In this document: piece after piece, positions 1,411 through 22,823 of the stretch
Position numbering within the stretch: position 1 is the first letter of the stretch
Layout: each line of letters starts with the position of its first letter
Assembly: GCA_016201065.1 (NCBI GenBank)
Contig: JACQDL010000048.1
Coordinates: 1-52,439, forward strand
Reading direction: 5' to 3'
DNA: 52,439 bases
DNA from: Actinomycetota bacterium
GTDB lineage: Bacteria; Actinomycetota; Actinomycetes; Mycobacteriales; JACQDL01
The notes under the pieces: generated by a model
The model's database searches: none
What the model was told of the DNA's origin: nothing
The model's input: the letters and a program-made list of their open reading frames with translations, nothing else
Translations under genes and position numbers: made by a program

Positions 1411-4795
<3,385 letters not shown>

Positions 4796-4855
4796 CGGGC
4801 CAGCCGTCACGCGGTGATCGGCTTCCGTTCCCTCTCCTGTCGAAAGGTTCACGCC

Positions 4856-6538
4856 ATGGTCTCGTTCGCGGCCACCGTCCTGTCCCCCGAGCAGCGTGTG
4901 GCGCTGGCTGCCGATCCCGGGGTCGGTGGGGGCAACCTGCTCCGGTCCGCCCTCGCCGCCAGCCCGCACCCCGATGAGCCGTTCATCTACTCGGCGACCG
5001 CGCTGCCGACCACGGACCACCGGCTGGTGCACCACCTCAGCCTGAACGACCTGGATCAGCTGGCGCAGAGCTGGTCGGCCTGGTACGTCGAGCAGGGGGT
5101 CCGGCCGCGGGACCGGGTTGCGGTGTTCCTCGCCGACTCCTTCGCCTACTCACTGCACTTCTACGCCCTGGCGCAGATCGGCGCCGTTGCCGTCCTGATC
5201 AACAGCAACGCCTCCCGGGCGATCAGCGAGTCCCTGATCGAGCAGACCCGACCGGTGGGCCTCTACACCGACCGCACCCGCCTGACGCTGCTCGACCGGA
5301 CGGCACCCGAGCTCGCCAGCCTGTGCTGGACCCGCACGGTCGAGGAGCTGCCGGCCCCGCCCGCCCGGGCACTGGACGAGCACTCGTGGTACCGGCACGA
5401 CCAGGAGGACCCGGTCGCGATCCTGCACTCCTCGGGTACCACGGGGCGCCCCAAGCCCACGATCCACACGCACCGGTCGATCGTCTCCGGCCCGAAGTTC
5501 CGGCTGGTCGACCACACCGAGACGCCAGGTGCCCTGATGCTGACGTCGCTGCCCCAGTCGCACCTGGGATGCATCGCCTACACCGCCTACGCTGTCCTCG
5601 GCGGCACGCCGCTGGTGGCCCTGCGCGACAGCACCGGTGCCGAGCTCGCCGCGGCGGTCGCGGAGCACCGTCCGACGGCCGTGATGTCGTTCGCGCACGG
5701 CTACGCGGAGCTGGCGGCGCTCGACGTCCGCCCCGGTGACCTGGACTCGGTGAACGTCTGGATCTCGATCGGGGACGCCGTTCACCAGGCACACATCACC
5801 CGAGTCCTCGCGCAGCGCAGCGCCGGGCTGCCGCCGGCCGCCTTCTACGACCGGTTGGGGACGACGGAGCTCGGCTGGGGTGTGCTGCTCCAGGTCCGGA
5901 CCCTCGCCTCGGAACGCAAGGACCGCTGTGCGGGAAGGCCCGTCGGTGTCGCCGAGGTGGCAGTCCTGCGACCGGACGGAACCCCCGCCGCGCCAGGTGA
6001 GGTTGGCCTGCTCGGGGCCCGCGGACCCGCCATCACGCCCGGGTACTGGAACGACTCGGCGACGACCCACGCCAGCCGGCTGGCCGGCTACTGGCTGACC
6101 GGTGACATGGCGCTCCGGGACGAGAACGGGGACCACTACCTCGTCGACCGGGCCGCCGACGCGATCCCGACCTCGTCCGGAATGGGCTACTCGGTGGCCA
6201 TGGAGGAGGTGCTGCTCGCCAGCCTCGCGCAGGTCAGCGACTGCGCCGTGGTCGCGGGCAGGTACGGGGAGGAGGTCGTGCCGGTGGCTGTGGTCACCAC
6301 GCACACCGGTGACGTCGACGCAGGGTTGCTGATGGCGGGTGCCAACGACGCGCTGCGGGCGGCCGGTCATCCTGAGCTCGCGCTGCTGGAGGTCGCCCGC
6401 ACGGAGCAGGACTTCCCCCTGGGCGTCACCGGGAAGGTGCTCAAGCGGCAGCTGCGTGAACGCTACGACGCGCTCGGGACGTACCTCGCCGGCGCCGGGT
6501 CGCGACACCGGGCGACGGCCCCCGCCCTGGTCCCCTGA
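4856..6538 (+). CDS. AMP-forming ligase (acyl-CoA synthetase superfamily), candidate CreM-like diazotase
   Basis: The 560-residue protein is an adenylate-forming enzyme: phosphate loop HSSGTTGRPK (191-200), YDRLGTTELGWG (331-342), GYWLTGD (411-417) and the catalytic-type lysine of VTGK (Lys527). The hinge region normally read G-R-x-K-D-x-I is VDRAADAI here, followed by an unusual SSGMGYSVAMEE instead of the glycine-rich G-x-x-V-x-P-x-E-V-E, so it is not a standard acyl-CoA synthetase. No carrier protein or CoA-dependent partner lies in the operon. Members of this superfamily such as CreM use ATP and nitrite to diazotise arylamines. Position between arylamine genes and a nitrate reductase suggests the same role, but this is inference. 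Start ATG 4856 with GAAAGG upstream; an earlier ATG at 4814 lacks a ribosome site. Confidence 0.75.
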   Translation: MVSFAATVLSPEQRVALAADPGVGGGNLLRSALAASPHPDEPFIYSATALPTTDHRLVHHLSLNDLDQLAQSWSAWYVEQGVRPRDRVAVFLADSFAYSLHFYALAQIGAVAVLINSNASRAISESLIEQTRPVGLYTDRTRLTLLDRTAPELASLCWTRTVEELPAPPARALDEHSWYRHDQEDPVAILHSSGTTGRPKPTIHTHRSIVSGPKFRLVDHTETPGALMLTSLPQSHLGCIAYTAYAVLGGTPLVALRDSTGAELAAAVAEHRPTAVMSFAHGYAELAALDVRPGDLDSVNVWISIGDAVHQAHITRVLAQRSAGLPPAAFYDRLGTTELGWGVLLQVRTLASERKDRCAGRPVGVAEVAVLRPDGTPAAPGEVGLLGARGPAITPGYWNDSATTHASRLAGYWLTGDMALRDENGDHYLVDRAADAIPTSSGMGYSVAMEEVLLASLAQVSDCAVVAGRYGEEVVPVAVVTTHTGDVDAGLLMAGANDALRAAGHPELALLEVARTEQDFPLGVTGKVLKRQLRERYDALGTYLAGAGSRHRATAPALVP

Positions 6539-6549
6539 CCCGTGAACCA

Positions 6550-8862: not shown

Positions 8863-10478
8863 TGACCCGGCCGGCCGACGACCAGGAGGCAGCCCCGTGG
8901 CGTGGGGCGACCGCACCCCAACGCGTGGTGGTGGTCGGGTTCGGGATGGCCGGTGGTCGGTTCGTGGACGAGCTGCTCACCCGCGAGGTGAACGGCCGGG
9001 CAACCCGGCGGAGCGCCGTGACCGTGGTGGGTGCCGAGCCCTATCCCGCCTACAACCGGGTCCTGCTGTCCGACGTGGTTGCCGGCCGGGCGGACGTCAC
9101 CGCACTCGGTCTGCGGGACCCCGGCCACCACGCCAGCCGCGGCATCGACATCCGCGTCTCCAGCCACGCCACCGGCCTCGACCTCCAGGTCGGCGCCGTC
9201 ACGCTGGACGACGGCAGCCGGCTGCCGTTCGACCGGTTGCTGCTCGCCACCGGGGCCGAGCCGGTGGTCCCGGCACTGGACGGCCTCGACCCGGACCGGT
9301 CACGGCCGGCGGGCGTGTACACCCTGCGCACCATCGACGACGCCCGCGAGATCGTCGCCGCCACGACCAACGCCAGCCGCGCCGTCGTTCTCGGTGGCGG
9401 TCCGCTCGGCCTTGAGGCGGCTCGTGGCCTTGCCCACCGCGGTCTGGCCGTGCAGCTGCTGCACGCCGGCGACCACCTGCTGGCGGGCGTGCTCGACCCG
9501 ACCGGCGGCATCGTGCTGTCGCGGGCGCTGCGCAGGCTCAGGATCGGGATCGACGTGCGCACCGGCACTGCCGTCACGGCGATCGAGGTACGTCGCGGCC
9601 GGCTCACCGGGGTCCGGCTGGCCGGAGCGTCCGGTGAGCCGGACGAGACGTTGCCGACCGACCTGCTGGTGATCGCCTGCGGCATCACGCCGCGCACACT
9701 CCTGGCCAGCGGTGCGGGGCTGGTCGTCGAGCGGGGCATCGTGGTCGACGACGGCCTCGCCACCGCAGACCCCCGGGTGCTTGCCATCGGCGATTGCGCC
9801 GAGCACCAGGGCCGGGTCCATGGCCTGGTCGCGCCGGCCTGGGAGCAGGCCCGCATCGCCGCGGACCTCATCACCGGTGCCGACCCCGCCGCCCGCTTCC
9901 TGGGCCACCGGCCATCGGTCCGGCTCAAGGCCGCGGACCTCGAGGTCGCCGTGATCGGCGACGCGCTGGCCGACCCGTGGTCCGAGGAGGACGGGGTCGA
10001 GGTGGTCCAGCTGCTCGACCCGGGTCGCGACCGCTACGTCAAGGCGGTGGTCCGTGCCGGCACGGTCGTGGGTGCCGCCGTGGTTGGCGACGCCCGCGCT
10101 GCCGCGGAGCTGCGCCTCATGGTGGAACGCGCCTCCCCTGCGCCCGCCGACCTGGCCAGCCTTCTCCTGCCCGGCACCCGGCGCACGGACCAGTACCCCG
10201 ATCGCACCGACGACCCCACCGCCATCCCCGACCGAACCACGATCTGCGGCTGCCACGGCGTCACCAAGGGCGCCCTGGTCAAGGCCTGGGCCGCGGGTGC
10301 CCGAAGCGCGCCGGACCTGTCCAGCGCCACCCGCGCCTGCACCGGCTGCGGCTCGTGTACCGACGCGGTCGCCGGGATGGCGCGGTGGCTCCAGCGGGTG
10401 CTGCCCGAGGCGGCGCCGACCCGTTCTCCGACCTCTCCGACCTCTCCGACCGCGACCCGAAAGCTGAGGACGATGTGA
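8862..10478 (+). CDS. nasB: FAD/NAD(P)H oxidoreductase with BFD-like [2Fe-2S] domain (nitrate reductase electron-transfer subunit, NasB-like)
   Basis: The 538-residue protein has an N-terminal FAD-binding fold (VVVVGFGMAGGRF near residue 18), the NYPAYNR-type YPAYNRVLLSDV segment of NirB-like reductases, a second dinucleotide site (VVLGGGPLGLEAA near 170) and the FAD-closing AIGDCAEH. The C-terminus carries C-G-C-H-G-V (residue ~461) and C-T-G-C-G-S-C (~493), the four-cysteine BFD-like cluster site. The sirohaem part of NirB is absent, so it should carry electrons from NAD(P)H to the catalytic subunit rather than reduce nitrite. ATG 8862 overlaps the nasA stop by one base; GTG 8859 is possible. 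The last residues are coded by three 9-bp repeats. Confidence 0.83.
   Translation: MTRPADDQEAAPWRGATAPQRVVVVGFGMAGGRFVDELLTREVNGRATRRSAVTVVGAEPYPAYNRVLLSDVVAGRADVTALGLRDPGHHASRGIDIRVSSHATGLDLQVGAVTLDDGSRLPFDRLLLATGAEPVVPALDGLDPDRSRPAGVYTLRTIDDAREIVAATTNASRAVVLGGGPLGLEAARGLAHRGLAVQLLHAGDHLLAGVLDPTGGIVLSRALRRLRIGIDVRTGTAVTAIEVRRGRLTGVRLAGASGEPDETLPTDLLVIACGITPRTLLASGAGLVVERGIVVDDGLATADPRVLAIGDCAEHQGRVHGLVAPAWEQARIAADLITGADPAARFLGHRPSVRLKAADLEVAVIGDALADPWSEEDGVEVVQLLDPGRDRYVKAVVRAGTVVGAAVVGDARAAAELRLMVERASPAPADLASLLLPGTRRTDQYPDRTDDPTAIPDRTTICGCHGVTKGALVKAWAAGARSAPDLSSATRACTGCGSCTDAVAGMARWLQRVLPEAAPTRSPTSPTSPTATRKLRTM
10425..10451 (+). repeat. Three 9-bp in-frame repeats at the end of nasB
   Basis: Three tandem copies of tctccgacc encode SPT-SPT-SPT in the tail of the flavoprotein, beyond the iron-sulphur domain. 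They precede the overlap with the cupin gene. Confidence 0.95.
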
Positions 10479-11269
10479 CCCAGAACGACCTCGCCACCGG
10501 TGCGGTGGTCCGCTCCGCCGAGCTCGTGTTCGAGCCGCACGACGGCTTCCTGACGGCCCGTGCCGTCGGTGAACGGATCGGTGCCAGGCTGGTGCGCCTC
10601 GACGTCGTGCGGCTGGCCGCCGGCCGTAGCTGGACCGTCCCCGACAGCGCGGACGAGCTCACCGTGGTGGTCCTCTCGGGCAGCGGCACCGGCCAGGTCG
10701 GTGACACCGCGAGGCCGGTCCGGTCGGCCTCCACGATGCATGGTCCGACCGGGAGCACCGTGCGGGTGCGGGCCGACGACCGGTCCGACATGGTGCTCTA
10801 TGTCTGGTTGAGCGGGCTCCTGCCCGGCCGCCCGACATCCGGCGCGCCGCGCCTGTTCGGGTCGCTCTGGGACACCGGGACCCAGCTGAGGAACTTCGCC
10901 GGCACCGGCCAGCTCAGCCCTGCCGAGCTGCCCGCCACGATGAACTTCATCTTCTGGCCGGGTACCGGCAGCGCCCAGCTCTGCCTTCACTGCGGAATCC
11001 AGGAGCCCGGCGAGACATTCAGCGTGCACCTGCACCCGGAGAGTGAGGACGCCTTCGTCGCGTTCGAGGGCGCCGGCCAGATGTACCTGCGGGACCGGTG
11101 GATCGACGTGCAGCAGGGCGACGTGCTGTTCGCGCCGCCGATGGTCCTGCACGGGGCGCGCAACCCACACCGCGGACGGCACGCTCGGCGGTTCGTCACC
11201 TGCGGCGGTCCCACCCCGTTCGACCCGTTCCTCTACGACGCCGCCGGCGCCTGTGCCGAGGTGCGTTGA
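10475..11269 (+). CDS. Cupin-domain protein with intact metal site
   Basis: The 264-residue protein looks like a bicupin. The first half is degenerate. The second has both classical cupin motifs: G-E-T-F-S-V-H-L-H-P-E-S-E (near residue 185; two His and a Glu) and G-D-V-L-F-A-P-P-M-V-L-H-G-A-R-N (near 215; the third His). A metal-dependent isomerase, oxygenase or binding protein is therefore expected. Known N-N-bond enzymes include cupins fused to or paired with MetRS-like proteins (hydrazine synthetases), but no MetRS partner is present here, so that link is only suggestive. The GTG start overlaps the nasB stop (ATGTGA), and AsnB follows two bases after its stop, which places it firmly in the operon. 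Confidence 0.8.
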   Translation: MTQNDLATGAVVRSAELVFEPHDGFLTARAVGERIGARLVRLDVVRLAAGRSWTVPDSADELTVVVLSGSGTGQVGDTARPVRSASTMHGPTGSTVRVRADDRSDMVLYVWLSGLLPGRPTSGAPRLFGSLWDTGTQLRNFAGTGQLSPAELPATMNFIFWPGTGSAQLCLHCGIQEPGETFSVHLHPESEDAFVAFEGAGQMYLRDRWIDVQQGDVLFAPPMVLHGARNPHRGRHARRFVTCGGPTPFDPFLYDAAGACAEVR

Positions 11270-11271
11270 CC

Positions 11272-13086
11272 GTGTGCCGGATCTTCGGGCACCTCTCCGC
11301 CGGGACGGCGCCGTACGAGCTGCGGATGGCTGCTGCCGCCCAGCGGCACGGCGGCCCTGACGCCCAGACCTGCGCGACCGGCCCGGGCTGGGGCATCGGC
11401 AGCAACCGGTTGGCCATCATGGACCTTGACGGCGGGCAGCAGCCGTACCGCCTGGGTGAGGTCCACGCGGTGTTCAACGGCGAGATCTACAACCATGACG
11501 CGCTGCGCCGCGACCTGCGCGCACGCGGGCACCGGTTCGCCGACCGCTGCGACGGGTCCATCATCCCAGCCCTGTACCTGGAGCACGGTACGGGATTCGC
11601 CGAGCTGCTCGACGGGATGTTCGCCATCGCCCTGGTCGACCTCCGGCACGAGCCGACGCTGGTTCTCGCGACCGACGACAGCGGCATGAAGTCCCTCTAC
11701 TACCAGTGGATTCCGGCGACGCAGGAGTTCTACTTCGCCTCCGAGATCCCCGGTCTGCTGTGTTTCCGCGCGGTGCAGACCGACCTGTGGCTCCCCGGGC
11801 TGGAGGAGTATCTCGCCACCAGGACGCCGTTCGGCGAGCAGACGATGCTGGCCGGAATACGGACCCTGCCGCCGGCCGCCACCGTGGTGTTCGACCGCTC
11901 GCACGGTCTGCGGATCACGCGGCGCGAGCGGGTGACCGATCTCAGCTGCCCGGCGACGGCGGCCGGCTGCGCCGAGCTGGTGGGTCGGCGGGTCAGCGCC
12001 GCGGTCGAGGCGTTGACCCGCGCCGACGTACCGATCGCCGCGATCACCAGCGGTGGCCTGGACTCCGGCTACGTGACCGCGCTCGCCAGCCGGGCCATCC
12101 CGGAGCTGCCCACGTTCAACATCGCGTACACGGGGACCTGGCCTGGCGACGAGCGGCACTACGCCAGCGAGATCGCCCGCCAGCTCGGTACCCGCCACCA
12201 TCAGGTGGAGATCGATCCCGCCACCTTCCCCGACCTGATCCCGGACGTCGTGTGGCATCTCGGTCAGCCCAACGCCGACCCGATCACGCTCAGCACGTTC
12301 GCGCTGTTCCGCGCGGTCCGCGACGCCGGATACACGGTGGCGCTCACCGGAGACGCCGCTGACGAGCTCTTCGGCGGCTACGACCGGCTCCGGGTGGCGG
12401 TCAGCGCGCCCGGCGACTGGGCCACGCCCTACCTGGACGCGCTCAGCGCCGTGGCGCCCGCCGTTCGGCATCGCCTCTACAGCAGCGACTACCGCGACTA
12501 TCTCGCCGGTGTCCACACCTACCGGAGCCGGTTGGCGGAGCTGCTCGCCCGCGACGACCGGTCCAGGTTGCAGCGGCTCAGCGAGGTGGAGCTGCGACAC
12601 CGGATGCCCGCCTACCACCTGCGCCGGGTCGACCACCTCAGCATGGCCCACGGCGTGGAGGCGCGGCTGCCCTACTGCCAGCGGGGCGTCGTCGACGTCG
12701 CGGCGGTCCTGCCCGACCCGCGGAAGATCGACGGGGGGCAGGTGAAGCGGGTGCTGTACGACGCCTGCCGCGGCACGCTGCCCGCGAGCGTGCTCGAACG
12801 CCCGAAACAACCGTTCACCCTGCCGGTGAGTGCGATGCTCCGGCCGGGCTCGACCCTGCTGACCTATGCCGAGGATGTCCTGCACCCCGACCGGCTGCGG
12901 CGCCGGGGACTGCTCGACCCGTCCGCGGTGCGGCAGCTGATCGAGGGCCAGCGGCAACGCCCCGACGATCGGCTCGCGCTGGCCATCTGGTCACTGATGA
13001 TCTTCGAGGTCTGGGCCGACCACTTCCTCTCCGCGACGGGCCCGAACCGGTCAGCGGCGCCCAGCATGGCGGGGGTGATGTCGTGA
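11272..13086 (+). CDS. Asparagine-synthase-like glutamine-dependent amidotransferase (AsnB family)
   Basis: The 604-residue protein starts GTG-Cys-Arg, so removal of the initiator leaves Cys as the N-terminal nucleophile of a class II glutaminase. The FNGEIYNH segment (~66) is the usual glutamine-pocket strand. The synthetase half has the PP-loop AITSGGLDSG (~257-266), a TGDAADELFGGYDR adenylate-site segment and the HRMPAYHLRRVDHLSMAHGVEARLP region in which AsnB enzymes bind the acyl adenylate. Such enzymes in antibiotic clusters amidate a pathway carboxylate with glutamine-derived ammonia rather than make asparagine. The third residue is Arg where housekeeping AsnB has Gly. It lies between the cupin and the PrpF-fold gene, with which it overlaps by four bases. 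Confidence 0.87.
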   Translation: MCRIFGHLSAGTAPYELRMAAAAQRHGGPDAQTCATGPGWGIGSNRLAIMDLDGGQQPYRLGEVHAVFNGEIYNHDALRRDLRARGHRFADRCDGSIIPALYLEHGTGFAELLDGMFAIALVDLRHEPTLVLATDDSGMKSLYYQWIPATQEFYFASEIPGLLCFRAVQTDLWLPGLEEYLATRTPFGEQTMLAGIRTLPPAATVVFDRSHGLRITRRERVTDLSCPATAAGCAELVGRRVSAAVEALTRADVPIAAITSGGLDSGYVTALASRAIPELPTFNIAYTGTWPGDERHYASEIARQLGTRHHQVEIDPATFPDLIPDVVWHLGQPNADPITLSTFALFRAVRDAGYTVALTGDAADELFGGYDRLRVAVSAPGDWATPYLDALSAVAPAVRHRLYSSDYRDYLAGVHTYRSRLAELLARDDRSRLQRLSEVELRHRMPAYHLRRVDHLSMAHGVEARLPYCQRGVVDVAAVLPDPRKIDGGQVKRVLYDACRGTLPASVLERPKQPFTLPVSAMLRPGSTLLTYAEDVLHPDRLRRRGLLDPSAVRQLIEGQRQRPDDRLALAIWSLMIFEVWADHFLSATGPNRSAAPSMAGVMS

Positions 13087-14195
13087 TCGGCGGAAGGACG
13101 GCGGTGGGTCACATCGCCGCCGCGCAGGGTGCGCCCTGCCCGACGCTGGTGCTCGACGGCAGGGACCTGCCCGCGGACCGGGAGGCTCTGGACGCGGCAT
13201 TGGGCGTGGCCAGAGCGTCACTGCGGGCCGCCGGGATGGGGCATGTCCTGAAGATCGCCCTGATCTCCCCCTCGTCGCATCCGATGTTCGACCTGAGCTA
13301 CCGGTTCGTGCAGTGCATCCCCGACCCCGCGGGTGAACGGTTCGATCATCTCGGCAGCTGCGGCCACTCCATCGTGGCCTCGACCCTGATCGCCGATCAG
13401 CTGGCCTGGGTGCCCCGGCTGGCGCCCGGCCACCGGATCAGGGTCGACGTGGTCAACAACAACGACCGTGTCGTGTGCGAGGTGGAGGAGGTTCGCCGTA
13501 CCGGCGGCGACCTCACGGTCCACTTCCTGCACGAGCCAGGTATCCCGCTGCCGGAGCTGCTGATCACCGGAGCGCCGGTGGAGACGCTGCGGGTCGGTTC
13601 CCGCGAGCATCGGGTCTCGCTGGTGTCGATGGGCAACCCCTATGTCTTCGTCCGGGCCGACAGCCTCGGCGTGCACAGCCGTGCGGAGCTCTTCGCCGAC
13701 GATCCCGGGCTGTTCGAGGCCATGGTGGCGCTGCGTCACCATGCCGCCGCCCGCTGGGGCTGGCCCGCCACCAGCGCCTTCCCGAAGATCGCGGTGGTGG
13801 GTCACCTCACCCCGGGCCACATCTCGGTGCGTGCCGTGTCGGTGCCCTGGTGGCACCCCACGCTTGCCCTGACCGGAGCGACCTGCCTGGCCGCGGCGGC
13901 GGTCGTGCCGGGCACGGTGGTGCACGAGGTGGCGCGGGAGGCCGGTACGGCGGCCGGTACGGCGGCCGGCCAGACGGCGGCCGGCCAGCTGGACATCGAG
14001 ACGCCGGGAGGAACGGTCGCGGCGATCCCGGTGCTACGGGGCACCGCGGACGCGCCCCACCTGTCGTGGGTGAGCGTCGCCGGAAAGCGTGCGCACTACG
14101 TCGGCGCGTTGACCGTCGAGCTGCCCGAGCGCTGTTTCCCAGTCCACTCACGGAGGAAGGAGCCGAAGCCATGGCGACCAGTCGTCACGGTCTGA
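13083..14195 (+). CDS. PrpF-family (diaminopimelate-epimerase fold) isomerase-like protein
   Basis: The 370-residue protein matches PrpF/methylaconitate-isomerase relatives: LGSCGHSIVA near residue 96 carries the active-site-type cysteine, GNPYVFVRA near 180 is the second-domain equivalent, and HPTLALTGATCLAAAAVVPGT near 258 is a PrpF hallmark. Family members shift a proton at a carbon next to a carboxylate (double-bond isomerisation; DapF relatives epimerise amino acids). A substrate cannot be named. D-cycloserine clusters also use a DapF-fold enzyme next to a CysK homologue and an ATP-grasp ligase, as here. GTG start overlaps the AsnB stop (GTGA). Near residue 287 there is a G-T-A-A-G tandem repeat. 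The 3' end overlaps the next gene by 25 bases. Confidence 0.8.
   Translation: MIGGRTAVGHIAAAQGAPCPTLVLDGRDLPADREALDAALGVARASLRAAGMGHVLKIALISPSSHPMFDLSYRFVQCIPDPAGERFDHLGSCGHSIVASTLIADQLAWVPRLAPGHRIRVDVVNNNDRVVCEVEEVRRTGGDLTVHFLHEPGIPLPELLITGAPVETLRVGSREHRVSLVSMGNPYVFVRADSLGVHSRAELFADDPGLFEAMVALRHHAAARWGWPATSAFPKIAVVGHLTPGHISVRAVSVPWWHPTLALTGATCLAAAAVVPGTVVHEVAREAGTAAGTAAGQTAAGQLDIETPGGTVAAIPVLRGTADAPHLSWVSVAGKRAHYVGALTVELPERCFPVHSRRKEPKPWRPVVTV
13941..13988 (+). repeat. In-frame tandem repeat in the PrpF-like gene
   Basis: Two copies of gccggtacggcg are followed by gccggccagacggcg and gccggccag, coding for a run of A-G-T-A, A-G-T-A, A-G-Q-T-A, A-G-Q in a surface-type insertion of the PrpF-like protein. 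The reading frame is preserved. Confidence 0.9.
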
Positions 14196-15358
14196 CGCAG
14201 AGCGAGCCGCACCGGTCAGGTCCCGTCGAGCCGGATGCGCCGGCGCGGTTCGCCGCCCGTCGGGCGGCGTTCATCGCCCAGCTGGCATCCGGCTCCACCG
14301 AGACTGACCAGGTCGCCGATGTGCCCCACCGGCCCGGCCCTGCGGTGCTCGCCAGCTTGCGGGGCTCCAGCCTCCCGGGCACCGTCATCCCCCGCAGCCA
14401 CGGCGGCACCGGCGGCGACGCCGTGCTCGCCAACGGGGTGGTCGCTGAGGTCGCCCGGCACCACCCGTCGCTGGCGATCGTGCTGTTCCAGCACCTCGCG
14501 GTGAGCGGTCGGATCACCGAATGGGGTACTCCGCGGCAACGCGCCGACCTGCTGCCGCCGCTGGCGGATGGCACCTGGCTGGCGGCCTCCGCCTGGAGCG
14601 AGCCGGGAGCCGGCGCGAACAAGCGGAACATCTCCACCACCGCGGTGCGGCAACCGGACGGCTCCTGGCTGCTCACCGGGGAGAAGAACCTCGCCACCGG
14701 AGCCGGCCTCGCGGATCTCTACCTGATCCTGGCCCGGACCGGTGCGGGAGTCGGGACCTCCGGCAGCTACGGCTCGACCGATCAGACCTTCTTCCTCGTC
14801 CGGGCCGGCACGGACGGCCTGCAGACGCAGGCTGGACCGGAGCTGGAAGGCATGCGCGCCTCGGCGACCGGACTGGTTCGGCTGGCTGGATGCCGGGTCG
14901 ACCCGCAGGACGTGCTCGGGGAGATCGGCGGGGCGGCGCGGATCATCGCCGGCGTCCGGGATTCTGGCGTGACGCTCGGAGCCGTCTCGGTGGGCATCGC
15001 CGAGGCGGCCTACCACCTTGCCGCCGAGCATCTCACCCGTGCCGGCGGGTTGGCCGACCAGGTGAGCCGGCATCGGCTGGTCGACCTGCGGGTCCGGGTG
15101 GAGGCCGCGCGAGCGGTCGTCGAGCACGCCGGCCGGCGGACCGGTGACGACCCGGGCCTGGTCACGCTCTACAGCAAGATCTTCGCCTCGGTGGAGGCCG
15201 AGCGGGTGTGCCGCCAGGCGCAGGGCCTGCTGGGCAGCGCCGGGTACCTGAGCTCCCACCCGATCAACCAGCTGGCCCGGGACGCCCGGGCGGTGGCCCT
15301 GATGGGGCCGACGAACGATCTCTGCCGCGAGCTGGTGAGCGCGTCATGGCAGTCCTGA
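14171..15358 (+). CDS. Acyl-CoA-dehydrogenase-like flavoprotein, catalytic Glu segment altered
   Basis: The 395-residue protein has the acyl-CoA dehydrogenase layout: helical N-domain, a beta-domain with WLAASAWSEPGAGAN and GEKNLATGAGLADLYLILA, and a helical C-domain with QAQGLLGSAGYLSSHP. In many family members the catalytic base is the Glu of a YEGT segment; here this place reads LMGPTND. It may therefore not be an ordinary alpha,beta-desaturase. ACAD-fold flavoenzymes include N-oxygenases (nitrososynthase type) and enzymes acting on N-N bonds in other pathways; either would suit the neighbours, but that is inference. Isovaleryl-CoA-type enzymes keep the base elsewhere, so loss of activity is not proven. 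ATG 14171 is preceded by GGAGGAAGGAG; the gene overlaps both neighbours. Confidence 0.8.
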   Translation: MATSRHGLTQSEPHRSGPVEPDAPARFAARRAAFIAQLASGSTETDQVADVPHRPGPAVLASLRGSSLPGTVIPRSHGGTGGDAVLANGVVAEVARHHPSLAIVLFQHLAVSGRITEWGTPRQRADLLPPLADGTWLAASAWSEPGAGANKRNISTTAVRQPDGSWLLTGEKNLATGAGLADLYLILARTGAGVGTSGSYGSTDQTFFLVRAGTDGLQTQAGPELEGMRASATGLVRLAGCRVDPQDVLGEIGGAARIIAGVRDSGVTLGAVSVGIAEAAYHLAAEHLTRAGGLADQVSRHRLVDLRVRVEAARAVVEHAGRRTGDDPGLVTLYSKIFASVEAERVCRQAQGLLGSAGYLSSHPINQLARDARAVALMGPTNDLCRELVSASWQS

Positions 15359-16851
15359 GCGGACCGCGCCACCTCGACGGCTCGCTGGGGGCAGCGGCAG
15401 GGTCGGACCAGCCCGGGTCCGGTGAGCCGGCCGACCTGGTGATCGCCAACGGCCGGCTGGTGCTGCCGACCGGGGTGGTCGAGGCGAGCGTCGCGGTCCG
15501 CGCCGGCCGGATCGAACGGATCCAACCTGCTGGTTCCAACCTCCCGGCGCGCCGGCTCCTCGACGCACGAGGTCGCCACGTGATGCCCGGCCTGATCGAC
15601 TCGCACGTGCACTTCCGAACCCCGGGGCTCACCCACAAGGAGGACTGGCGGCACGGCAGCCGGGCCGCGGTCGCCGGGGGCGTCACCACGGTCATCGACA
15701 TGCCGAACACGGTGCCACCACTGTTCGACCCGGCCCGGGCCGCAGCAAAGGCAGCGCTGATCGAGGGCAGCTCACTCGTCGACTTCCGGTTCCACCTGGG
15801 CGTCGACCCACAGCGGCCCGACCTTCTCGACACCGTGACCCCCCGCGAGGCGGTGAGCGCCAAGGTGTTCATGGCTGGACACCACACGGCACCGCATGTC
15901 GTCCGGGACGCCGCACAGCTGGAGCGGATCTTCCGGATCGCGGCGCGCAGCGGCCTGCGGCTGGTCCTGCACGCCGAGGACGATCGCGTGTTCGCGCTCC
16001 TGGACCGGTGGCGACCCGGGCCGAGCAGCTATGCGGACTATGAGCCCATGCGCCCGCGCAGCGGTGGGATCGTCGCTGCGGCGACCGTCATCGACCTGGT
16101 CGAACGCGCCGGGACGGCGACCCATGTCCTGCATGTGTCCAGCGCGGAGGAGGCCGACCTGTACGCCGCGGCAGCGGCGAGCGGGTTGCCGATCACCTTC
16201 GAGGTCACCGGGCACCACCTCTCCTTCTCCGACCACGACATGCTGCGGCTGGGCTCCCGGATCCGGCTCAGCCCGGCCATCCGTCAGCCGGCGGACCGGG
16301 AACGGCTGTGGACAGCCGTGTTCTCCGGACAGGCTGGCACGCTCGGCAGCGACCACGCACCGCATCTGCAGGCCGAGAAGTGCCGCCCCCCGGCCGAGGC
16401 CCCACCCGGGCTGCCGGGCATCCAGGAGCTGGCCTCCGCCGTCTTCACCGGCATGCGCCGGCGCCGTCCCGACCAGCCGGTGGACGAGCAGGTCGCCCTG
16501 CTCGCCAGGCTTGGCGCCACCGCACCCGCCGACCTCTTCGGGCTGGGCGGCCGCAAGGGCCGGATCGAGGTCGGCGGCGACGCCGACTTCGTGATCTTCG
16601 ACTCCCGGGCCACCTGGTCGTTGGGCGCCTCCCGGGTGCAGTCCAAGTGCGGCTGGTCGGCCTACGAGGGCTGGCTGTTCACCGGCCGGGCCGACCTGAC
16701 GATCCGCGCCGGGGAGGTCGTGCACGATGCCGCCACCGGCGAGTTCGGCGCGCCGTCGGGGCGTTGGTTGGCTGCCGAGCCCATGGCCGGTCCGGTTCCC
16801 GTTCCCGCGGGCGGCGGGCGGCCGCCCGACCGGGTCGGGGTGCGCCGGTAG
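15346..16851 (+). CDS. Cyclic amidohydrolase (dihydroorotase / allantoinase / hydantoinase-like)
   Basis: This 501-residue TIM-barrel amidohydrolase has GLIDSHVHFRTPG (two metal His near residue 85-88), a lysine in VSAKVFMAG (~172) that fits the carboxylated bridging Lys, HAED (~210), THVLHVSS (~262), FEVTGHH (~287) and LGSDHAP (Asp ~336). All metal ligands appear present, so an active enzyme opening or closing a cyclic imide or ureide is expected. No pyrimidine gene is near, so a pathway role is more likely than PyrC function: hydrolysis or formation of a dihydroorotate- or hydantoin-like ring. ATG 15346 lies in the end of the flavoprotein gene (13-base overlap). A 75-base gap, the largest in the operon, follows. 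Confidence 0.82.
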   Translation: MAVLSGPRHLDGSLGAAAGSDQPGSGEPADLVIANGRLVLPTGVVEASVAVRAGRIERIQPAGSNLPARRLLDARGRHVMPGLIDSHVHFRTPGLTHKEDWRHGSRAAVAGGVTTVIDMPNTVPPLFDPARAAAKAALIEGSSLVDFRFHLGVDPQRPDLLDTVTPREAVSAKVFMAGHHTAPHVVRDAAQLERIFRIAARSGLRLVLHAEDDRVFALLDRWRPGPSSYADYEPMRPRSGGIVAAATVIDLVERAGTATHVLHVSSAEEADLYAAAAASGLPITFEVTGHHLSFSDHDMLRLGSRIRLSPAIRQPADRERLWTAVFSGQAGTLGSDHAPHLQAEKCRPPAEAPPGLPGIQELASAVFTGMRRRRPDQPVDEQVALLARLGATAPADLFGLGGRKGRIEVGGDADFVIFDSRATWSLGASRVQSKCGWSAYEGWLFTGRADLTIRAGEVVHDAATGEFGAPSGRWLAAEPMAGPVPVPAGGGRPPDRVGVRR

Positions 16852-16926
16852 GACCACGACCACCACCTCGTCACCGCCCACCTTGCGCCGGACCACCGGC
16901 ACCGCTTCGACACCACGGAGGCACTC

Positions 16927-19149
16927 GTGCACCTCGGCGTTCTGGAGAGCAACCTGTCCGGTTCCGGCTTCGAAGGGCTGCGCCTGGCCAAGGATCGCGG
17001 GCTGCAGGTGACGTTCCTCACCCGCGACCTGCAGCGTTACCTCGACGTGCCCGGAGGGCCACGGTATTTCGACGAGTACGTCGACGAAATCGTCTTCTGC
17101 GAGACCAACGAGCTCACGCCGCTGCTGCGGCAGGTGCACTCGGTCGCAGAGCGGAGGCCGTTCGACGCCTTCATGACCATGGGCGAGTACGACGTCGTGC
17201 TCGCGGCCGAGGTCGCCCGGACGCTGCGGTTACCGGCACCGGACCCCACGGCGGTCGCCGTGGCCCGGAACAAGTTGTGGATGCGGGAGCGATGCGCCGA
17301 ACGCGCAGTGCCGATGCCGGCCTTCGGTGGGGCCGCGACCGTGACGGAGGCCCGCGAGGTGGCGTCCCGGATCGGTCTCCCCTGTGTCGTGAAACCCGTG
17401 GACGAGACCAGCAGCACCGACGTACTCCGCTGCACGAGCCTTGACCAGGTCGCCGACCATGTCGCCCAGATCCTCGCCAAGCCCGTCAACACCCGAGGTC
17501 AGGCGCGCTTCACCAGGGTCCTCATCGAGGAGTGCCTGCGCGGTCACGAGGTCAGTGTCGAGGTCCTCGGTGAGGGCAGCCGCTTCCGTGTGCTCGGCGT
17601 GACCGACAAGAGCGTCGCCGGCCAGGGACACTTCATCGAGATCGGACACTACTTCCCGTCCCTGCTGCCGCCCGCTGTCGTCGCGGGCTGCGCCCGGGTC
17701 GCCGTCGACGCCCTACGCGCCGTCGGGTTCAACCTCGGCCTGGCACATGTGGAGGTGAAGGTCACCGGCGACGGGCCACGGCTGATCGAGATCAACCCCC
17801 GGCCGGCCGGCGACAAGATCACCGAGCTGGTCGATCGCGTGCTGGGGCTGTCCTGCCTCGATCTCGTGATCGGCCAGTACCTGGGCGAGCGGGTGATCGA
17901 CGGGCTCTGCATCGAGGCACGTGGTGGTGCGGCGATCCACTACCTTTCCGCGCCACCCGGCCGGATCACCTCGGTCACCGGCGTGGAGGAGGCCCGCACC
18001 ATGCCCGGGGTGGCGGAGGTCGTGGTCAAGGTCGGACCAGGCGGTGAGGTGCGCCCGTTGCGTCGCAACGCCGACCGGCTCGGGCATGTGCTGGCCGTCG
18101 GACCGGATCCGTACAGCGCCCGGCGGGCCGCGGAGGCCGCCGTGCACGAAATCGCGATCCACACCGAACCCGCCACCACATCGGTCACCCGTGGCGTGGC
18201 CCGGACCATCTCCGATCTGATCGGGCGGACGCCGCTGCTCCGTCTTCCGACGCCCGACTCGGGTCCTGACGTCCAGGTCATCGCCAAGCTGGAGATGGCC
18301 AACCCGCTGTCCAGCGTCAAGGACCGCGCGGCGCTGTACATGATGCGGGCGGCCGAGCAACGCGGCCAGCTGATCCCGGGCAGCACCATCATCGAGGCGA
18401 CCTCCGGCAACACCGGGATCGCGCTCGCGGGTCTGGCGGCCGCGCGCGGCTACCGGTGCGTGATCGTCCTGCCTGACAGCGCAACCCCGGAGCGGATCAG
18501 CCTGCTGCGCGCGCTCGGAGCCACCGTGATCCAGACGCCACGCTCCGGCGGCTACCTCGGGGCGATCGACCGCGCCGAGGAGATTCACCAGGCAACGCCG
18601 GGGTCCTGGTTCCCGCGGCAGCACGAGAATCCCGACAACGTCCGCGCCCACTACGAGACGACCGGACCTGAGCTGTGGTCCGATCTCGCCGGGAGGATCG
18701 ATGCCTTCGTCTGCGGGGTCGGGACCGGAGGCACGCTGACGGGTACCGGCCGCTACCTCAAGGAGCGGAACGCGATGATCGAGATCGTCGCGGTCGAACC
18801 CGAACGGTCCCCGGTGCTCTCCGGCGGGGTCGGCGGCCTGCACATGATCCCCGGCCTCAACGGCGGGTTCATCGCACCCACCACCGATATCGGCTGCATC
18901 GACCGGATCGTCACCGTCACCGACGAGGACGCCGCCGCGACCACCCGTCACCTCGCCCGGACGCTCGGGCTGCTCGTCGGCATCTCCTCCGGTGCGGCGG
19001 CGCACACCGCCCTGCAGCTGGCGGGGCAACCGGACTACGCGGGCAAGGTGATCGTCACCTTGTTGCCCGATACCGGCGAGCGGTACCTCAGCTCGTGGCC
19101 GGCGGAGGTGACCACCTGTCAGTCCCCCGCCGGCGGAGTGGAGACCTGA
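16927..19149 (+). CDS. ATP-grasp ligase fused to a cysteine-synthase-like PLP enzyme
   Basis: One 740-residue open frame joins two enzymes. Residues ~1-410 are an ATP-grasp ligase: GLPCVVKPVDETSSTDV (~155-171), the RVLIEECLRG strand and EINPRPAGDKITE (Mg/ATP site, ~288). Residues ~425-730 are a CysK/OAS-sulphhydrylase homologue: ISDLIGRTPLLRLP, PLSSVKDRAA with PLP Lys465, EATSGNTGIALAG, GVGTGGTLTGTGRYL and GISSGAAAH. The CysK half should put a nucleophile on the beta-carbon of an activated serine; the ATP-grasp half should join the product through a carboxylate to an amine. A TTA codon lies at 17230-17232. GTG 16927 has GGAGG five bases upstream. Separate CysK and ATP-grasp proteins cooperate in D-cycloserine and dapdiamide clusters; fusion is unusual. 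Confidence 0.85.
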   Translation: MHLGVLESNLSGSGFEGLRLAKDRGLQVTFLTRDLQRYLDVPGGPRYFDEYVDEIVFCETNELTPLLRQVHSVAERRPFDAFMTMGEYDVVLAAEVARTLRLPAPDPTAVAVARNKLWMRERCAERAVPMPAFGGAATVTEAREVASRIGLPCVVKPVDETSSTDVLRCTSLDQVADHVAQILAKPVNTRGQARFTRVLIEECLRGHEVSVEVLGEGSRFRVLGVTDKSVAGQGHFIEIGHYFPSLLPPAVVAGCARVAVDALRAVGFNLGLAHVEVKVTGDGPRLIEINPRPAGDKITELVDRVLGLSCLDLVIGQYLGERVIDGLCIEARGGAAIHYLSAPPGRITSVTGVEEARTMPGVAEVVVKVGPGGEVRPLRRNADRLGHVLAVGPDPYSARRAAEAAVHEIAIHTEPATTSVTRGVARTISDLIGRTPLLRLPTPDSGPDVQVIAKLEMANPLSSVKDRAALYMMRAAEQRGQLIPGSTIIEATSGNTGIALAGLAAARGYRCVIVLPDSATPERISLLRALGATVIQTPRSGGYLGAIDRAEEIHQATPGSWFPRQHENPDNVRAHYETTGPELWSDLAGRIDAFVCGVGTGGTLTGTGRYLKERNAMIEIVAVEPERSPVLSGGVGGLHMIPGLNGGFIAPTTDIGCIDRIVTVTDEDAAATTRHLARTLGLLVGISSGAAAHTALQLAGQPDYAGKVIVTLLPDTGERYLSSWPAEVTTCQSPAGGVET

Positions 19150-19193: not shown

Positions 19194-19454
19194 CTAGTCG
19201 CCCGGTGTGGCGCGTGCCGGATGGTTGAAGGCAACGGCGGCGGCCAGCGCGGCCCGGGACCGGATGTCGAGCTTGCCGAAGATATTCTCCATATGCCGCT
19301 CGACCGTCTTCACGCTGAGATGCAAGTCATCAGCGATGACCCGGTTGGTCAGTCCGCAGGCGACCAACGAGGCGACCTCAGCCTCGCGTGGGCTGAGTTT
19401 CTCAAGACTGAAGCGTGGCAGGCCGGGATTGGCCGCGTACTTTGGTTGAGCCAT
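19194..19454 (-). CDS. Small LuxR/GerE-type DNA-binding regulator without receiver domain
   Basis: The 86-residue protein consists almost only of a LuxR-type helix-turn-helix: LSPREAEVASLVACG, NRVIADDLHLSVKTVERHM and IFGKLDIRSRAAL. There is no receiver or ligand-binding domain. The start is set at the ATG at 19454 because the frame further upstream (to 19748) is low-complexity Arg/Pro sequence unlike any domain; GGGGA lies nine bases before it. It is convergent with the biosynthetic operon and divergent from the LAL regulator. It could be an independent single-domain regulator, or the remnant of a response regulator that lost its N-terminal domain. Confidence 0.75.
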   Translation of the reverse strand: MAQPKYAANPGLPRFSLEKLSPREAEVASLVACGLTNRVIADDLHLSVKTVERHMENIFGKLDIRSRAALAAAVAFNHPARATPGD

Positions 19455-19850
19455 TGTCACAGTCCCCAACTTCCGGTGCGGTTGAAATGGTGCGCGGGCC
19501 AGCCGTCCCGACCATCGCGAACGCGAAGGTCGGGGCTTCCGGCGCCATGACACCAGCATCGCCTCAGCGGACGGGCGGGCACATGGGTAGCGGGCTCCCG
19601 GATTAGCCGTGGCCGCCGGAAGCCGGTGCGGCCGGCATGGCCCACGGCGCGGTTCGCGCCCGCACCCGTCGCCGGGGTCGGTCGCCCGCATCCCACCCGT
19701 CCGCTCCACGTCACGCTGCGCATCCGCGTCACCGGGAGAAACCCCCACGGACCCTCGGTCGGGTGAAGTAATGTGGGTAACGGCTACCCAGATGGGTCAT
19801 GCCGTACATCACGCCGTCCGGGGGGACGTCACAGGTTGCGAGGACGTACA
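19455..19850. promoter_or_regulatory. Divergent regulator intergenic region with 17-bp palindrome
   Basis: These 396 bases separate the two LuxR-type genes. At 19774-19790, TGGGTA-acggc-TACCCA is an inverted repeat with six-base arms, 61 bases before the LAL start; palindromes of this size are typical of LuxR/GerE-type operators. The rest holds no supported gene; frames through it are Arg/Pro-rich. Confidence 0.45.
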
Positions 19851-22823
19851 GTGTGTCCGGTCGCGGGTCCGCCACCTGCGCGGACCCGAGCACCGCGGCT
19901 CGTCGGGCGGGCCATCGAGATACAGATGCTTGACAATGCTCTGGCGCGGTCCCGGGCCGGGCTCGGATCGGCCGTCTTCATACTCGGTGAGGCCGGAATC
20001 GGTAAGTCGCGACTATCGATGGAGGCCACCGGCCGGGCAGTCGCGGAGCGGACCGTGGTGATGCGCGGGCGAGCCAGCACGCTCGGCCCGGGTGTGCCGT
20101 TCCGGCCGATCACCGAAGCCCTGTTGTCGCTGTTGCGCAGGGGAATCTCCCCCACGGACAAGGACCTTGGTCCCTACCTGCCGGCGCTGGGCAGGCTCGT
20201 CCCGGAGTGGGCGATCTCGGGCACCGCGAATGTGGGCGGCTCGCTCATCGTGCTGGCCGAGGCGATCCTGCGGCTCACCGCCGCGGTCGGCGATGAGACA
20301 GGGTGTCTGATCGTGCTGGAGGATCTGCACGACGCCGATCTCGAGACGCTTGCCGTCGTGGAGTACCTCTGCGACAACCTGGAGCACCAGCCGACCATGC
20401 TGCTCGCCACCATGCGCACCGAGCAGGGCGCGGCGCTCGACCTCGCCAGGTCAGCCGAGCTGCGGCACGCCGGCACATCCATCGAGCTCACCCGACTCGG
20501 CCGTGACGCGACCCACGAGCTCGTCGTTTCCTGTCTCGGAGCGGGGGGGTGCGAGGTGCCCGCCGCGGTGTCCGAGCGGCTGTGGCACGACAGCGCCGGG
20601 GTTCCGTTCGTGGTCGAGGAGCTGCTCTTCGGCATGGTCAGCGGCGGCAAGCTGGTCCAGCAGAGCGACGGCGGCTGGCGGCTGCTCGACACCGGCCGGC
20701 ACCACCTGCCCAGCACCCTCGTGCGCAGCATCGGCCAGCGCACCGAGCGGCTCGGTCCGCAGGGCAAGGCGCTGTTGTCGGTGGCCGCGGTACTCGGCAG
20801 GCAGTTCTCGCTGACCGTCGTGCAGACGGTCCTCGACGTCGACGACCACCTCCTGCTCAGCCACCTGCATGCGGCGGTGGAGGCACAGTTGATCGCACCC
20901 GACGAACGCGGGCCGGACTGGTACGCCTTCCAACATCCGCTCACCGTGGACGCGCTGCTCGGCCAGCTCACCCCGGCTGACCGCGCGGAGCTGGCCCGGC
21001 GGGCCGCCGACGCGGCCGAGGCGCAGCACCCCGACCTCGAGGACGACTGGTGCCAGCTGGTGGCGATGTTGCGGATGAACGCCAACGACCACGTCGCCGC
21101 CGCTCGCCTGCTCACCGAGGCTGGTCGGCGGGCGTTGGCGTCGGGTGCGGCGGGCTCGGCGGTGGCCCTCCTCGACCGGGCCGAGCGGCTGCTGGTCGGC
21201 GCCGATGACCCGGTGGTCAGGGCGCAGACACTGGAGACGCTGCTCTACGCGTTGGCCGAGTGCGGTGAGTTCGACCGTGCCTTCACCCTCGCGGACGCCA
21301 TCGATGACCGGACCGCTGGCATCGACACGGGACATCGGATCGCGCTGCACGTGCGGCTGGCGTGGACCGCCCACCTGGCGGGCCGCTGGTCGGACGGAGC
21401 CAACCAGCTGGCCGCGGCGCGGGCGCTGCTGACCAGGGATACGACCGCGCGGGACACCGCGGCGATCGACGCCGCAGCGATCGACGCCGCAGCGATCGAC
21501 GCCGTGGCGGCCTATCTGGCGCTCGACGGGGTAGGCCCCGACCGCCTGCACGAGGCTGAGACCCTGGCCCATGGCCTGGTCCACAGCCCTGACGCGCCAC
21601 CACTGGCGAAATGCCAGGGCTGGCACGTCCTCGGCGTGGTGGCCCGAGAGCGCGACCTGGCCGAGGCGCATGACTGCTTCGACCATGCCCGCCGGATCGC
21701 CGAGGAACACCAGCTGCCGATCTGGCGGCTCTACGCGACGCTCGGTCTGGCGGGCAACGCGTGGCTGCGCACCAGCGACCTCACGGCACTCGAGTCAGCG
21801 CGCGACACCGCGCTGAGGTCGGGCGCGATCACGCTGGCGCAGAACATCGAAGCCACCATCGCCATGCACCACGTGCTGGTGGGGGACTTCGACGCCGCGG
21901 CGGCGCGGATCGACGCCTGCCTGCGCACGGTGGAGCGGCTGCGGATCACCAGCGTGGCCCGCTACCTGCACATGACCCGGGCGGCGCTGGCCGCGCACCG
22001 GGGCAGGCGGGAGGAGATGGAACAGGCGCTGGTGCGGTTCCGCGAGCACGGCGGTGACCAGTCGCAGGAGCTGACCCTCGCCTACGGCCTTGCCACGGCC
22101 TTCTGCGCGTTACTCAGGGAAGACCGCGCGCTCGGCGCGGCCGAGCTGGACCGGGTGGTCGCCGCCGAGGCGGAGCGACCCACGACCTACCACCTCGCTG
22201 GTTCGCACGGGCTGTGCCTGCTGCTCGGCGTGCTCGACGGCAGCGTGGACTGGGCGCGGTTCCGGGAGACCACCGCGGAGGCACCGGCATCGATGCGCTG
22301 GAACCATCAGTTCGTCCTGCTCGCCGAGGCGGTGCTGCTGGGGCGGGACGGGCACCTGGCCGAGGCGACCGACGCGGCTGCGCGGGCACAGGGCCTGGCC
22401 GCGCCGTACGGCATGGCTCGGCATCTGGGGCTGCGGCTGGTGGCCAGGACGGCCCACGACGACGGCTGGGGTGACCCGGTGGCCTGGCTCCGGTCCGCGG
22501 AGGAGTACTTCCACCGGGCGGAGGTGCCTGCGGTGGCGAGTGCCTGCCGGACGCTGCTTCGGCAGTTCGGGGTCCCGCTGCGGCAGCGCAGAACCGGCAC
22601 CGACCGGGTGCCCGTGGATCTGCGGACCGCCGGTGTGACGATCCGCGAGTTCGAGGTGTTCGAGGTACTCGCGGACCGGTTGAGCAACAAGGCCGTGGCG
22701 GGGCGGATGCACATCTCGCCACGGACGGTGGAGAAGCACGTGGCCAACCTGATCGTCAAGACCCGCAGTGCCGATCGGGCCGCGCTGGTCGAGTACGCCT
22801 GGTCGACGATGGCCGCCCGGTGA
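19851..22823 (+). CDS. LAL-type LuxR transcriptional regulator (large ATPase), likely cluster activator
   Basis: The 990-residue protein has the LAL architecture: AAA/STAND ATPase with Walker A GEAGIGKSRL (~49) and Walker B region CLIVLEDLHDAD (~152), a long helical TPR-like middle (residues ~400-880), and a C-terminal LuxR helix-turn-helix (ITIREFEVFEVLA-like TIREFEVF, NKAVAGRMHISPRTVEKHV). Such proteins are often pathway-specific activators. The start chosen is GTG 19851, six bases after GAGGA; an upstream GTG frame has no homology-like sequence. A TTA codon at 22110-22112 (Leu in FCALLRED) makes it a possible target of bldA control. It is followed by a strong hairpin. A triplicated 15-bp repeat lies in the middle domain. 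Confidence 0.87.
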   Translation: MCPVAGPPPARTRAPRLVGRAIEIQMLDNALARSRAGLGSAVFILGEAGIGKSRLSMEATGRAVAERTVVMRGRASTLGPGVPFRPITEALLSLLRRGISPTDKDLGPYLPALGRLVPEWAISGTANVGGSLIVLAEAILRLTAAVGDETGCLIVLEDLHDADLETLAVVEYLCDNLEHQPTMLLATMRTEQGAALDLARSAELRHAGTSIELTRLGRDATHELVVSCLGAGGCEVPAAVSERLWHDSAGVPFVVEELLFGMVSGGKLVQQSDGGWRLLDTGRHHLPSTLVRSIGQRTERLGPQGKALLSVAAVLGRQFSLTVVQTVLDVDDHLLLSHLHAAVEAQLIAPDERGPDWYAFQHPLTVDALLGQLTPADRAELARRAADAAEAQHPDLEDDWCQLVAMLRMNANDHVAAARLLTEAGRRALASGAAGSAVALLDRAERLLVGADDPVVRAQTLETLLYALAECGEFDRAFTLADAIDDRTAGIDTGHRIALHVRLAWTAHLAGRWSDGANQLAAARALLTRDTTARDTAAIDAAAIDAAAIDAVAAYLALDGVGPDRLHEAETLAHGLVHSPDAPPLAKCQGWHVLGVVARERDLAEAHDCFDHARRIAEEHQLPIWRLYATLGLAGNAWLRTSDLTALESARDTALRSGAITLAQNIEATIAMHHVLVGDFDAAAARIDACLRTVERLRITSVARYLHMTRAALAAHRGRREEMEQALVRFREHGGDQSQELTLAYGLATAFCALLREDRALGAAELDRVVAAEAERPTTYHLAGSHGLCLLLGVLDGSVDWARFRETTAEAPASMRWNHQFVLLAEAVLLGRDGHLAEATDAAARAQGLAAPYGMARHLGLRLVARTAHDDGWGDPVAWLRSAEEYFHRAEVPAVASACRTLLRQFGVPLRQRRTGTDRVPVDLRTAGVTIREFEVFEVLADRLSNKAVAGRMHISPRTVEKHVANLIVKTRSADRAALVEYAWSTMAAR
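21462..21506 (+). repeat. Triplicated 15-bp in-frame repeat in the LAL gene
   Basis: Three head-to-tail copies of gcgatcgacgccgca (last copy ends ccgtg) encode A-I-D-A-A three times in the helical middle of the LAL regulator. Together with the repeats in nasA, nasB and the PrpF gene it is the fourth in-frame tandem expansion in this cluster. Confidence 0.95.

What the first reader, a model, noticed from the sequence alone, without database searches (positions are those of the whole stretch)
16927..19149. ATP-grasp ligase and CysK homologue fused in one protein
A single uninterrupted 740-codon frame contains complete motifs of both enzymes (Lys465 as PLP lysine; EINPRPAGDKITE as metal site). 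In known pathways such as D-cycloserine and dapdiamide these activities are separate proteins. Fusion suggests channelling: formation of a beta-substituted alanine and immediate amide or ring closure.
Basis: partly seen in the sequence, partly recalled or inferred. Interest (0 to 1): 0.72.

Follow-up and report, generated by a model that had tools for sequence, protein, structure and literature searches.

The report
Fused amino-acid maker and peptide ligase
This is one real protein that joins a cysteine-synthase-like enzyme, which probably builds an unusual amino acid, to a ligase that probably links that amino acid into a small peptide; it sits in an undescribed antibiotic-type gene cluster that seems to attach a nucleobase-like ring to alanine instead of to sugar.

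Summary
Window 16927-19149 (+) is one 740-codon gene: ATP-grasp L-amino-acid ligase (about 1-414) plus a CysK-type PLP enzyme (about 428-723), with the core residues of both. It is no frameshift: full-length orthologues (61-63% identity) occur in 7 of 392 Streptomyces genomes, and the same CysK family occurs unfused in about 40 more. The cycloserine/dapdiamide comparison fits poorly, and channelling has no evidence. The CysK half belongs to a well-supported clade whose 33 members all changed two active-site motifs (QF to QH; IQGIGAGF to IPG[LF][NT]GG), so its nucleophile is probably not sulfide. A cupin-AsnB-PrpF-acyl-CoA dehydrogenase-dihydroorotase module precedes it; PrpF lies near this CysK in 24 of 47 Streptomyces genomes, and elsewhere the module pairs with the C-nucleoside-forming glycosidase PsuG. 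Best reading: the module makes a nucleobase-like ring, CysK joins it to alanine, the ATP-grasp half makes a peptide bond. The operon also carries papABC, a diazotase-like gene and a duplicated nitrate reductase without nitrite reductase, apparently replacing the nitrosuccinate lyase found in all four relatives checked. Product and reactions are inferred, not shown.

The parts
16927..19149 (+). bifunctional protein: ATP-grasp L-amino acid ligase + CysK-type PLP enzyme, 740 aa
16927..18168 (+). N-half: ATPgrasp_N, ATP-grasp_4, LAL_C2 (residues 1-414); Lys156, Glu201/202, Glu276, Glu288, Arg292 aligned to solved L-amino acid ligases
18169..18207 (+). inter-domain linker, residues about 415-427
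   Evidence: gap between LAL_C2 and PALP matches; unresolved in model
18208..19095 (+). C-half: CysK-type fold-type-II PLP enzyme (residues 428-723), PLP Lys465, altered QH and IPGLNGGF motifs
15346..16851 (+). dihydroorotase/allantoinase-type amidohydrolase; predicted ring closure
   Evidence: 47-62% identity to module genes elsewhere
14171..15358 (+). acyl-CoA dehydrogenase-fold flavoenzyme; predicted desaturation
13083..14195 (+). PrpF-family isomerase; predicted tautomerase/isomerase
11272..13086 (+). AsnB-type glutamine-dependent amidotransferase
10475..11269 (+). cupin, 49-53% identical to the cupin directly before asnB in the PsuG-type clusters L144 and L138
8862..10478 (+). NasB-like FAD/NADH reductase with BFD [2Fe-2S] domain, no nitrite reductase domain; paralogue (57%) of the housekeeping gene on contig C62
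6550..8862 (+). NasC-like molybdopterin nitrate reductase; paralogue (74%) of the housekeeping copy on contig C62
4856..6538 (+). AMP-forming enzyme nearest to AvaA6 aminoavenalumate diazotase (355.6 bits; below curated cut-off 975)
3866..4795 (+). PapC-like (prephenate dehydrogenase family)
1755..3869 (+). PapA-like fused aminodeoxychorismate synthase
1411..1758 (+). PapB-like chorismate mutase
19194..19454 (-). LuxR-type regulator downstream of the operon (start uncertain; open frame to 19748)
19773..22823 (+). large AAA/LuxR (LAL-type) regulator

Best explanation
The protein is a bifunctional biosynthetic enzyme of an undescribed gene-cluster family. Shown: anatomy, conservation of the fusion, altered CysK motifs, and gene context. 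Inferred: the upstream cupin-AsnB-PrpF-acyl-CoA dehydrogenase-dihydroorotase genes build a small nucleobase-like ring (amidation, unsaturation, ring closure, tautomerisation). The CysK half forms the PLP aminoacrylate from an activated serine, most likely O-acetylserine, and the ring, not sulfide, adds to it, giving a beta-(heterocyclyl)-L-alanine. The ring probably adds through carbon, as it would with the C-nucleoside enzyme PsuG. The ATP-grasp half then activates a carboxylate as acyl phosphate and makes a peptide bond to or from this amino acid, giving a dipeptide, as BacD does for bacilysin. Confidence by step: architecture about 0.97; nucleophile other than sulfide about 0.75; ring module feeding the CysK half about 0.6; the whole chain as stated about 0.45.
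For: Domains over curated cut-offs. Fusion conserved in 7 further genomes. CysK clade support 100/99; all members carry QH and IPG[LF][NT]GG where CysK1 has QF and IQGIGAGF. Relatives place the CysK next to an EpsC-type serine O-acetyltransferase over its cut-off (164.9 and 173 vs 150), 2-4 ATP-grasp genes and MFS genes. PrpF lies 2.8-27 kb from this CysK in 24 of 47 Streptomyces genomes; genome-level Fisher P 3.7e-17, not corrected for kinship. The same module (46-62% identity to the window) stands with PsuG (PF04227) and a HAD phosphatase, without CysK, in Streptomyces NBC_00212 and G793, and with both PsuG and CysK in Priestia pB2.1. In the Streptomyces fusion clusters the module's place is taken by an A-insert-T-TE-tautomerase protein, the architecture of MinA, whose product is joined to ribose by a C-glycosynthase (PMC8724604).
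Against: No substrate or product is known. The window genome has no recognisable serine acetyltransferase (best 40.6 bits against a cut-off of 210.65; assembly 97.8% complete), so O-acetylserine supply is open. The CysK half just passes the CysK equivalog model (351.8 vs 350.95), so plain cysteine synthesis is not excluded. The Priestia CysK keeps QF and IQG and shares only LNGG. About half of the CysK-bearing Streptomyces genomes show no PrpF nearby.
Confidence: 0.45

Rival explanations
1. The CysK half is an ordinary cysteine synthase that supplies cysteine in situ to the fused ligase, giving a cysteine-containing peptide.
For: Just passes the TIGR01139 cysK equivalog cut-off (351.8 vs 350.95); nearest solved structure is M. 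tuberculosis CysK1; relatives carry a serine acetyltransferase beside it.
Against: Both active-site motifs are changed in all clade members. It would leave the conserved AsnB-PrpF-ACAD-dihydroorotase module and its PsuG alternative unexplained.
Confidence: 0.2
2. The CysK half uses an amine nucleophile (amino acid or ammonia), making a 2,3-diaminopropionate-type residue as SbnA does, and the ligase caps it.
For: SbnA, EDDS and aspergillomarasmine pathways use CysK-fold enzymes with amines (established knowledge); the clade's motifs near the nucleophile are altered.
Against: SbnA model score 221.8 is far below its cut-off 349.95. It does not explain the ring-type module.
Confidence: 0.2
3. The nucleophile is N- or O-linked (for example hydroxyurea-like or an imide nitrogen), followed by intramolecular ring closure by the ATP-grasp half, as in D-cycloserine.
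For: DcsD is a CysK-fold enzyme and DcsG an ATP-grasp enzyme (established knowledge).
Against: Closer to CysK1 (309.7 bits) than to O-ureidoserine synthase (218.6). The ligase carries LAL_C2, as in dipeptide ligases. No arginase or hydroxyurea genes among the called genes of the operon.
Confidence: 0.1

Closest known systems
Cysteine synthase A (CysK/OASS; M. tuberculosis CysK1, 2q3b)
   Same: Fold, PLP lysine, TSGNTG loop, GTGGT phosphate loop, SSGA
   Different: QF to QH, IQGIGAGF to IPGLNGGF, EPTSG to EATSG; fused to a ligase; distinct clade
L-amino acid ligases BL00235 (3vot) and BacD (3vmm)
   Same: ATP-grasp core and the Glu and Arg positions of the metal/phosphate site
   Different: Distant (phmmer E 5e-18 and 4e-7); fused C-terminally to a PLP enzyme; substrates unknown
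Minimycin and showdomycin C-nucleoside pathways (MinA/MinB, SdmA)
   Same: Related clusters use a MinA-like A-Ox-T-TE-tautomerase protein, or the window's ring module together with PsuG
   Different: The window has no PsuG; a CysK-type enzyme stands where PsuG would be, so alanine replaces ribose (inferred)
Avenalumate/cremeomycin diazo pathways (AvaA6, CreM, CreD/CreE)
   Same: Diazotase-like AMP-forming enzyme in the operon; relatives carry nitrosuccinate lyase
   Different: Window genome has no nitrosuccinate lyase; a nitrate reductase pair is present instead
PRK02186 ATP-grasp/argininosuccinate lyase fusion
   Same: ATP-grasp ligase fused to a second metabolic enzyme
   Different: Partner enzyme is of another superfamily

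Membership tests
Cysteine synthase A (CysK) | Curated equivalog score TIGR01139 | tested here: met
   351.8 vs 350.95, marginal
Cysteine synthase A (CysK) | PLP lysine, TSGNTG and GTGGT loops | tested here: met
   Lys465, 492-497, 599-603
Cysteine synthase A (CysK) | QFxNP and IQGIGAGF active-site motifs | tested here: not met
   QHENP and IPGLNGGF, conserved in the whole clade
Cysteine synthase A (CysK) | Sulfide as nucleophile | not testable with these tools
   needs enzyme assay
L-amino acid ligase (ATP-grasp with LAL_C2) | ATP-grasp_4 and LAL_C2 over cut-off | tested here: met
   67.6 vs 27 and 91.8 vs 29.4
L-amino acid ligase (ATP-grasp with LAL_C2) | ATP/metal residues aligned with solved ligases | tested here: met
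   alignments to 3vot and BacD
L-amino acid ligase (ATP-grasp with LAL_C2) | ATP-dependent dipeptide formation | not testable with these tools
   needs enzyme assay
D-cycloserine enzymes DcsD/DcsG | closest to O-ureidoserine synthase | tested here: not met
   218.6 vs 309.7 bits to CysK1
Dapdiamide synthase DdaF | NF041595 cut-off | tested here: not met
   42.4 vs 840
SbnA 2,3-diaminopropionate enzyme | TIGR03945 cut-off | tested here: not met
   221.8 vs 349.95
C-nucleoside cluster | PsuG/C-glycosynthase in the cluster | tested here: not met
   none among the called window genes; present with the same module in L138, L140, L144
Diazo pathway | AvaA6-type diazotase over curated cut-off NF058622 | tested here: not met
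   355.6 vs 975, but best of all models by a wide margin
Diazo pathway | nitrosuccinate lyase NF052556 as nitrite source | tested here: not met
   best 39.8 bits in own genome; 777-802 bits in the four relatives checked

The most novel reading that the evidence does not exclude
A CysK-type PLP enzyme has taken the place of the C-nucleoside glycosynthase: it joins a nucleobase-like ring by a carbon-carbon bond to alanine, and a fused ATP-grasp ligase packs the resulting amino acid into a peptide. In the window's operon this is combined with a 4-aminophenylalanine-type diazonium branch fed with nitrite by a dedicated, duplicated nitrate reductase.
Probability: 0.35. Interest if true: 0.8.

Novelty: new variant of a known kind. 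Interest (0 to 1): 0.6.

Why it matters
If right, it exposes a widespread cluster family (47 of 392 Streptomyces genomes sampled carry the CysK) that makes nucleobase-like amino acids and peptides, a compound class with few known members, and gives a single-chain enzyme for making beta-heterocyclyl alanines and their dipeptides. It also gives a directly testable case of an assimilatory nitrate reductase recruited to supply nitrite for a natural product.

Tried and rejected
Frameshift or assembly artefact: rejected by seven orthologous fusions. Single origin of the fusion: not resolved; the CysK tree needs two label changes, the ATP-grasp tree is compatible with one (40% of bootstrap trees). 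Literature: searches for ATP-grasp with cysteine synthase, indigoidine synthetase, PrpF/AsnB, aminodeoxychorismate and diazotase terms found no description of this fusion or cluster in the open-access library; subscription journals are not covered. Channelling: AlphaFold from 7 sequences gave mean pLDDT 70 and pTM 0.47 with residues 321-433 unresolved; uninformative on packing. O-ureidoserine, SbnA and dapdiamide filings were tested and dropped. Repeats around the gene are weak and GC-driven.

Full report
Observation. The frame at 16927-19149 is a single 740-codon gene. Its first 414 residues carry ATPgrasp_N, ATP-grasp_4 and LAL_C2, and residues 428-715 the PALP fold, all over Pfam cut-offs. 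Both halves have coding third positions.

The fusion is real and recurrent. Among 396 genomes of the phylum, one other genome has the full fusion; among 392 Streptomyces, seven do (61-63% identity, same order), and about 40 more show the CysK part without a fused N-half. None of 60 nearer relatives has it. In a Solirubrobacteraceae MAG and in Streptomyces HNM0575 the two activities are separate but clustered. In Priestia aryabhattai plasmid pB2.1 an ATP-grasp gene lies directly before cysK, in the order of the fusion. The window's own genome holds an unfused paralogue of the N-half (58%) beside a second ATP-grasp and an MFS gene on contig C49. Trees place the nine N-halves in one clade (100/100) and the CysK halves in a clade of 33 (100/99); whether fusion happened once or twice is open.

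The CysK half is not an ordinary cysteine synthase by its motifs. All clade members read QH where CysK1 reads QF, and IPG[LF][NT]GG where CysK1 reads IQGIGAG. In OASS structures these positions lie near the nucleophile side of the active site (established knowledge, not computed here). The Priestia protein keeps QF and IQG but has LNGG, so it looks intermediate. The CysK equivalog model is passed by less than one bit.

Context gives the likely chemistry. The window operon runs 1411-19149, twelve genes with gaps of -25 to 75 bases: papB, papA, papC, diazotase-like, nasC, nasB-like, cupin, asnB, prpF, acyl-CoA dehydrogenase, dihydroorotase-like, fusion. The asnB-prpF-ACAD-dihydroorotase set recurs beside this CysK family: of 47 CysK-positive and 46 PrpF-positive Streptomyces genomes, 27 are shared and 24 have the two within 30 kb (Fisher P 3.7e-17, kinship not corrected). 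The same set, with a cupin 49-53% identical to the window's directly before asnB, forms a cluster with pseudouridine-5'-phosphate glycosidase (PF04227) and a HAD phosphatase, and no CysK, in Streptomyces NBC_00212 and in G793. Priestia has both PsuG and CysK with it. Identity of the module to the window is similar in PsuG-type and CysK-type clusters. In the Streptomyces fusion clusters the module is absent and an A-insert-T-TE protein with a C-terminal tautomerase stands there; its insert weakly matches NRPS oxidase BmdC. That is the architecture reported for MinA, which turns glutamine into a ring that the glycosynthase MinB couples to ribose through carbon (PMC8724604). Two different ring-making modules, each known or seen here with a C-glycosynthase, thus both occur with this CysK. 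The simplest account is that the CysK adds the ring to the PLP aminoacrylate, making an amino acid where PsuG would make a nucleoside. Each chemical step is inference.

Serine activation. Relatives place an EpsC-type serine O-acetyltransferase next to the CysK, which supports O-acetylserine. The window's genome lacks a recognisable one, so its electrophile is uncertain.

The ligase half most resembles dipeptide ligases. Fusion clusters in Streptomyces hold two more ATP-grasp genes and an MFS exporter, so the product there is probably a longer peptide. Channelling remains a guess; the model was uninformative.

A second finding in the operon. The AMP-forming enzyme at 4856-6538 is far closer to AvaA6 diazotase (355.6 bits) than to any other curated model (next 162.2), though below that model's cut-off; the related diazotase CmaA6 uses nitrous acid (PMC10777205). 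The four Streptomyces clusters with papABC plus this gene (50-69% identity) each have a nitrosuccinate lyase over the cut-off (777-802 bits) in the neighbourhood, whereas the window genome has none (best 39.8 bits). Instead the window carries a second copy of nasC (74%) and nasB (57%), whose housekeeping copies lie on contig C62 with a transporter-like gene and nirBD-like genes; only the two genes that end at nitrite are duplicated in the operon. A dedicated nitrate-to-nitrite supply is the natural reading, again untested. How the diazo branch and the CysK branch meet in one product is not known.

Novelty. No description of the fusion or the cluster family was found in the open-access library searched. 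The parts are known kinds; the combination and the probable replacement of a C-glycosynthase by a CysK make it a new variant.

Noticed in passing
window 6550-10478; G000 contig C62 (L110): Duplicated nitrate reductase pair (nasC 74%, nasB 57% to the housekeeping copy) without nitrite reductase, next to a diazotase-like gene; relatives have nitrosuccinate lyase instead.
   Followed up: yes
G000 contig C49, L017 1742-6445: Second, CysK-less locus in the same genome: unfused paralogue of the fusion's ATP-grasp half, another ATP-grasp, MFS and a PEP-mutase-family gene.
   Followed up: partly
L144 6200-20677 (Streptomyces NBC_00212 plasmid); L138 980-13095: Apparently undescribed C-nucleoside-type cluster: PsuG, HAD phosphatase, cupins, AsnB, PrpF, ACAD, dihydroorotase, flavin reductase.
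   Followed up: partly
L118 2389-4996; L120 13206-15955; L136 2246-4874; L141; L145: In many relatives a TauD dioxygenase, an HpcH/HpaI aldolase and a second CysK paralogue (SGNTG changed to SGSTG) precede asnB; role unknown.
   Followed up: partly
L140 6047-19859 (Priestia aryabhattai plasmid pB2.1): The whole module with both CysK and PsuG on a Bacillota plasmid, plus a dihydroorotate dehydrogenase that could be a self-resistance copy or a ring enzyme.
   Followed up: partly
G000 whole genome: No recognisable serine O-acetyltransferase and no CysK other than the fusion; only a CBS-type and a distant PALP homologue, so cysteine supply in this organism is unclear.
   Followed up: partly
L057 4954-5577: Mycothiol-dependent nitroreductase-like protein (Rv2466c family) beside the diazotase-like gene in the Streptomyces pap clusters; not seen in the window operon.
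   Followed up: no
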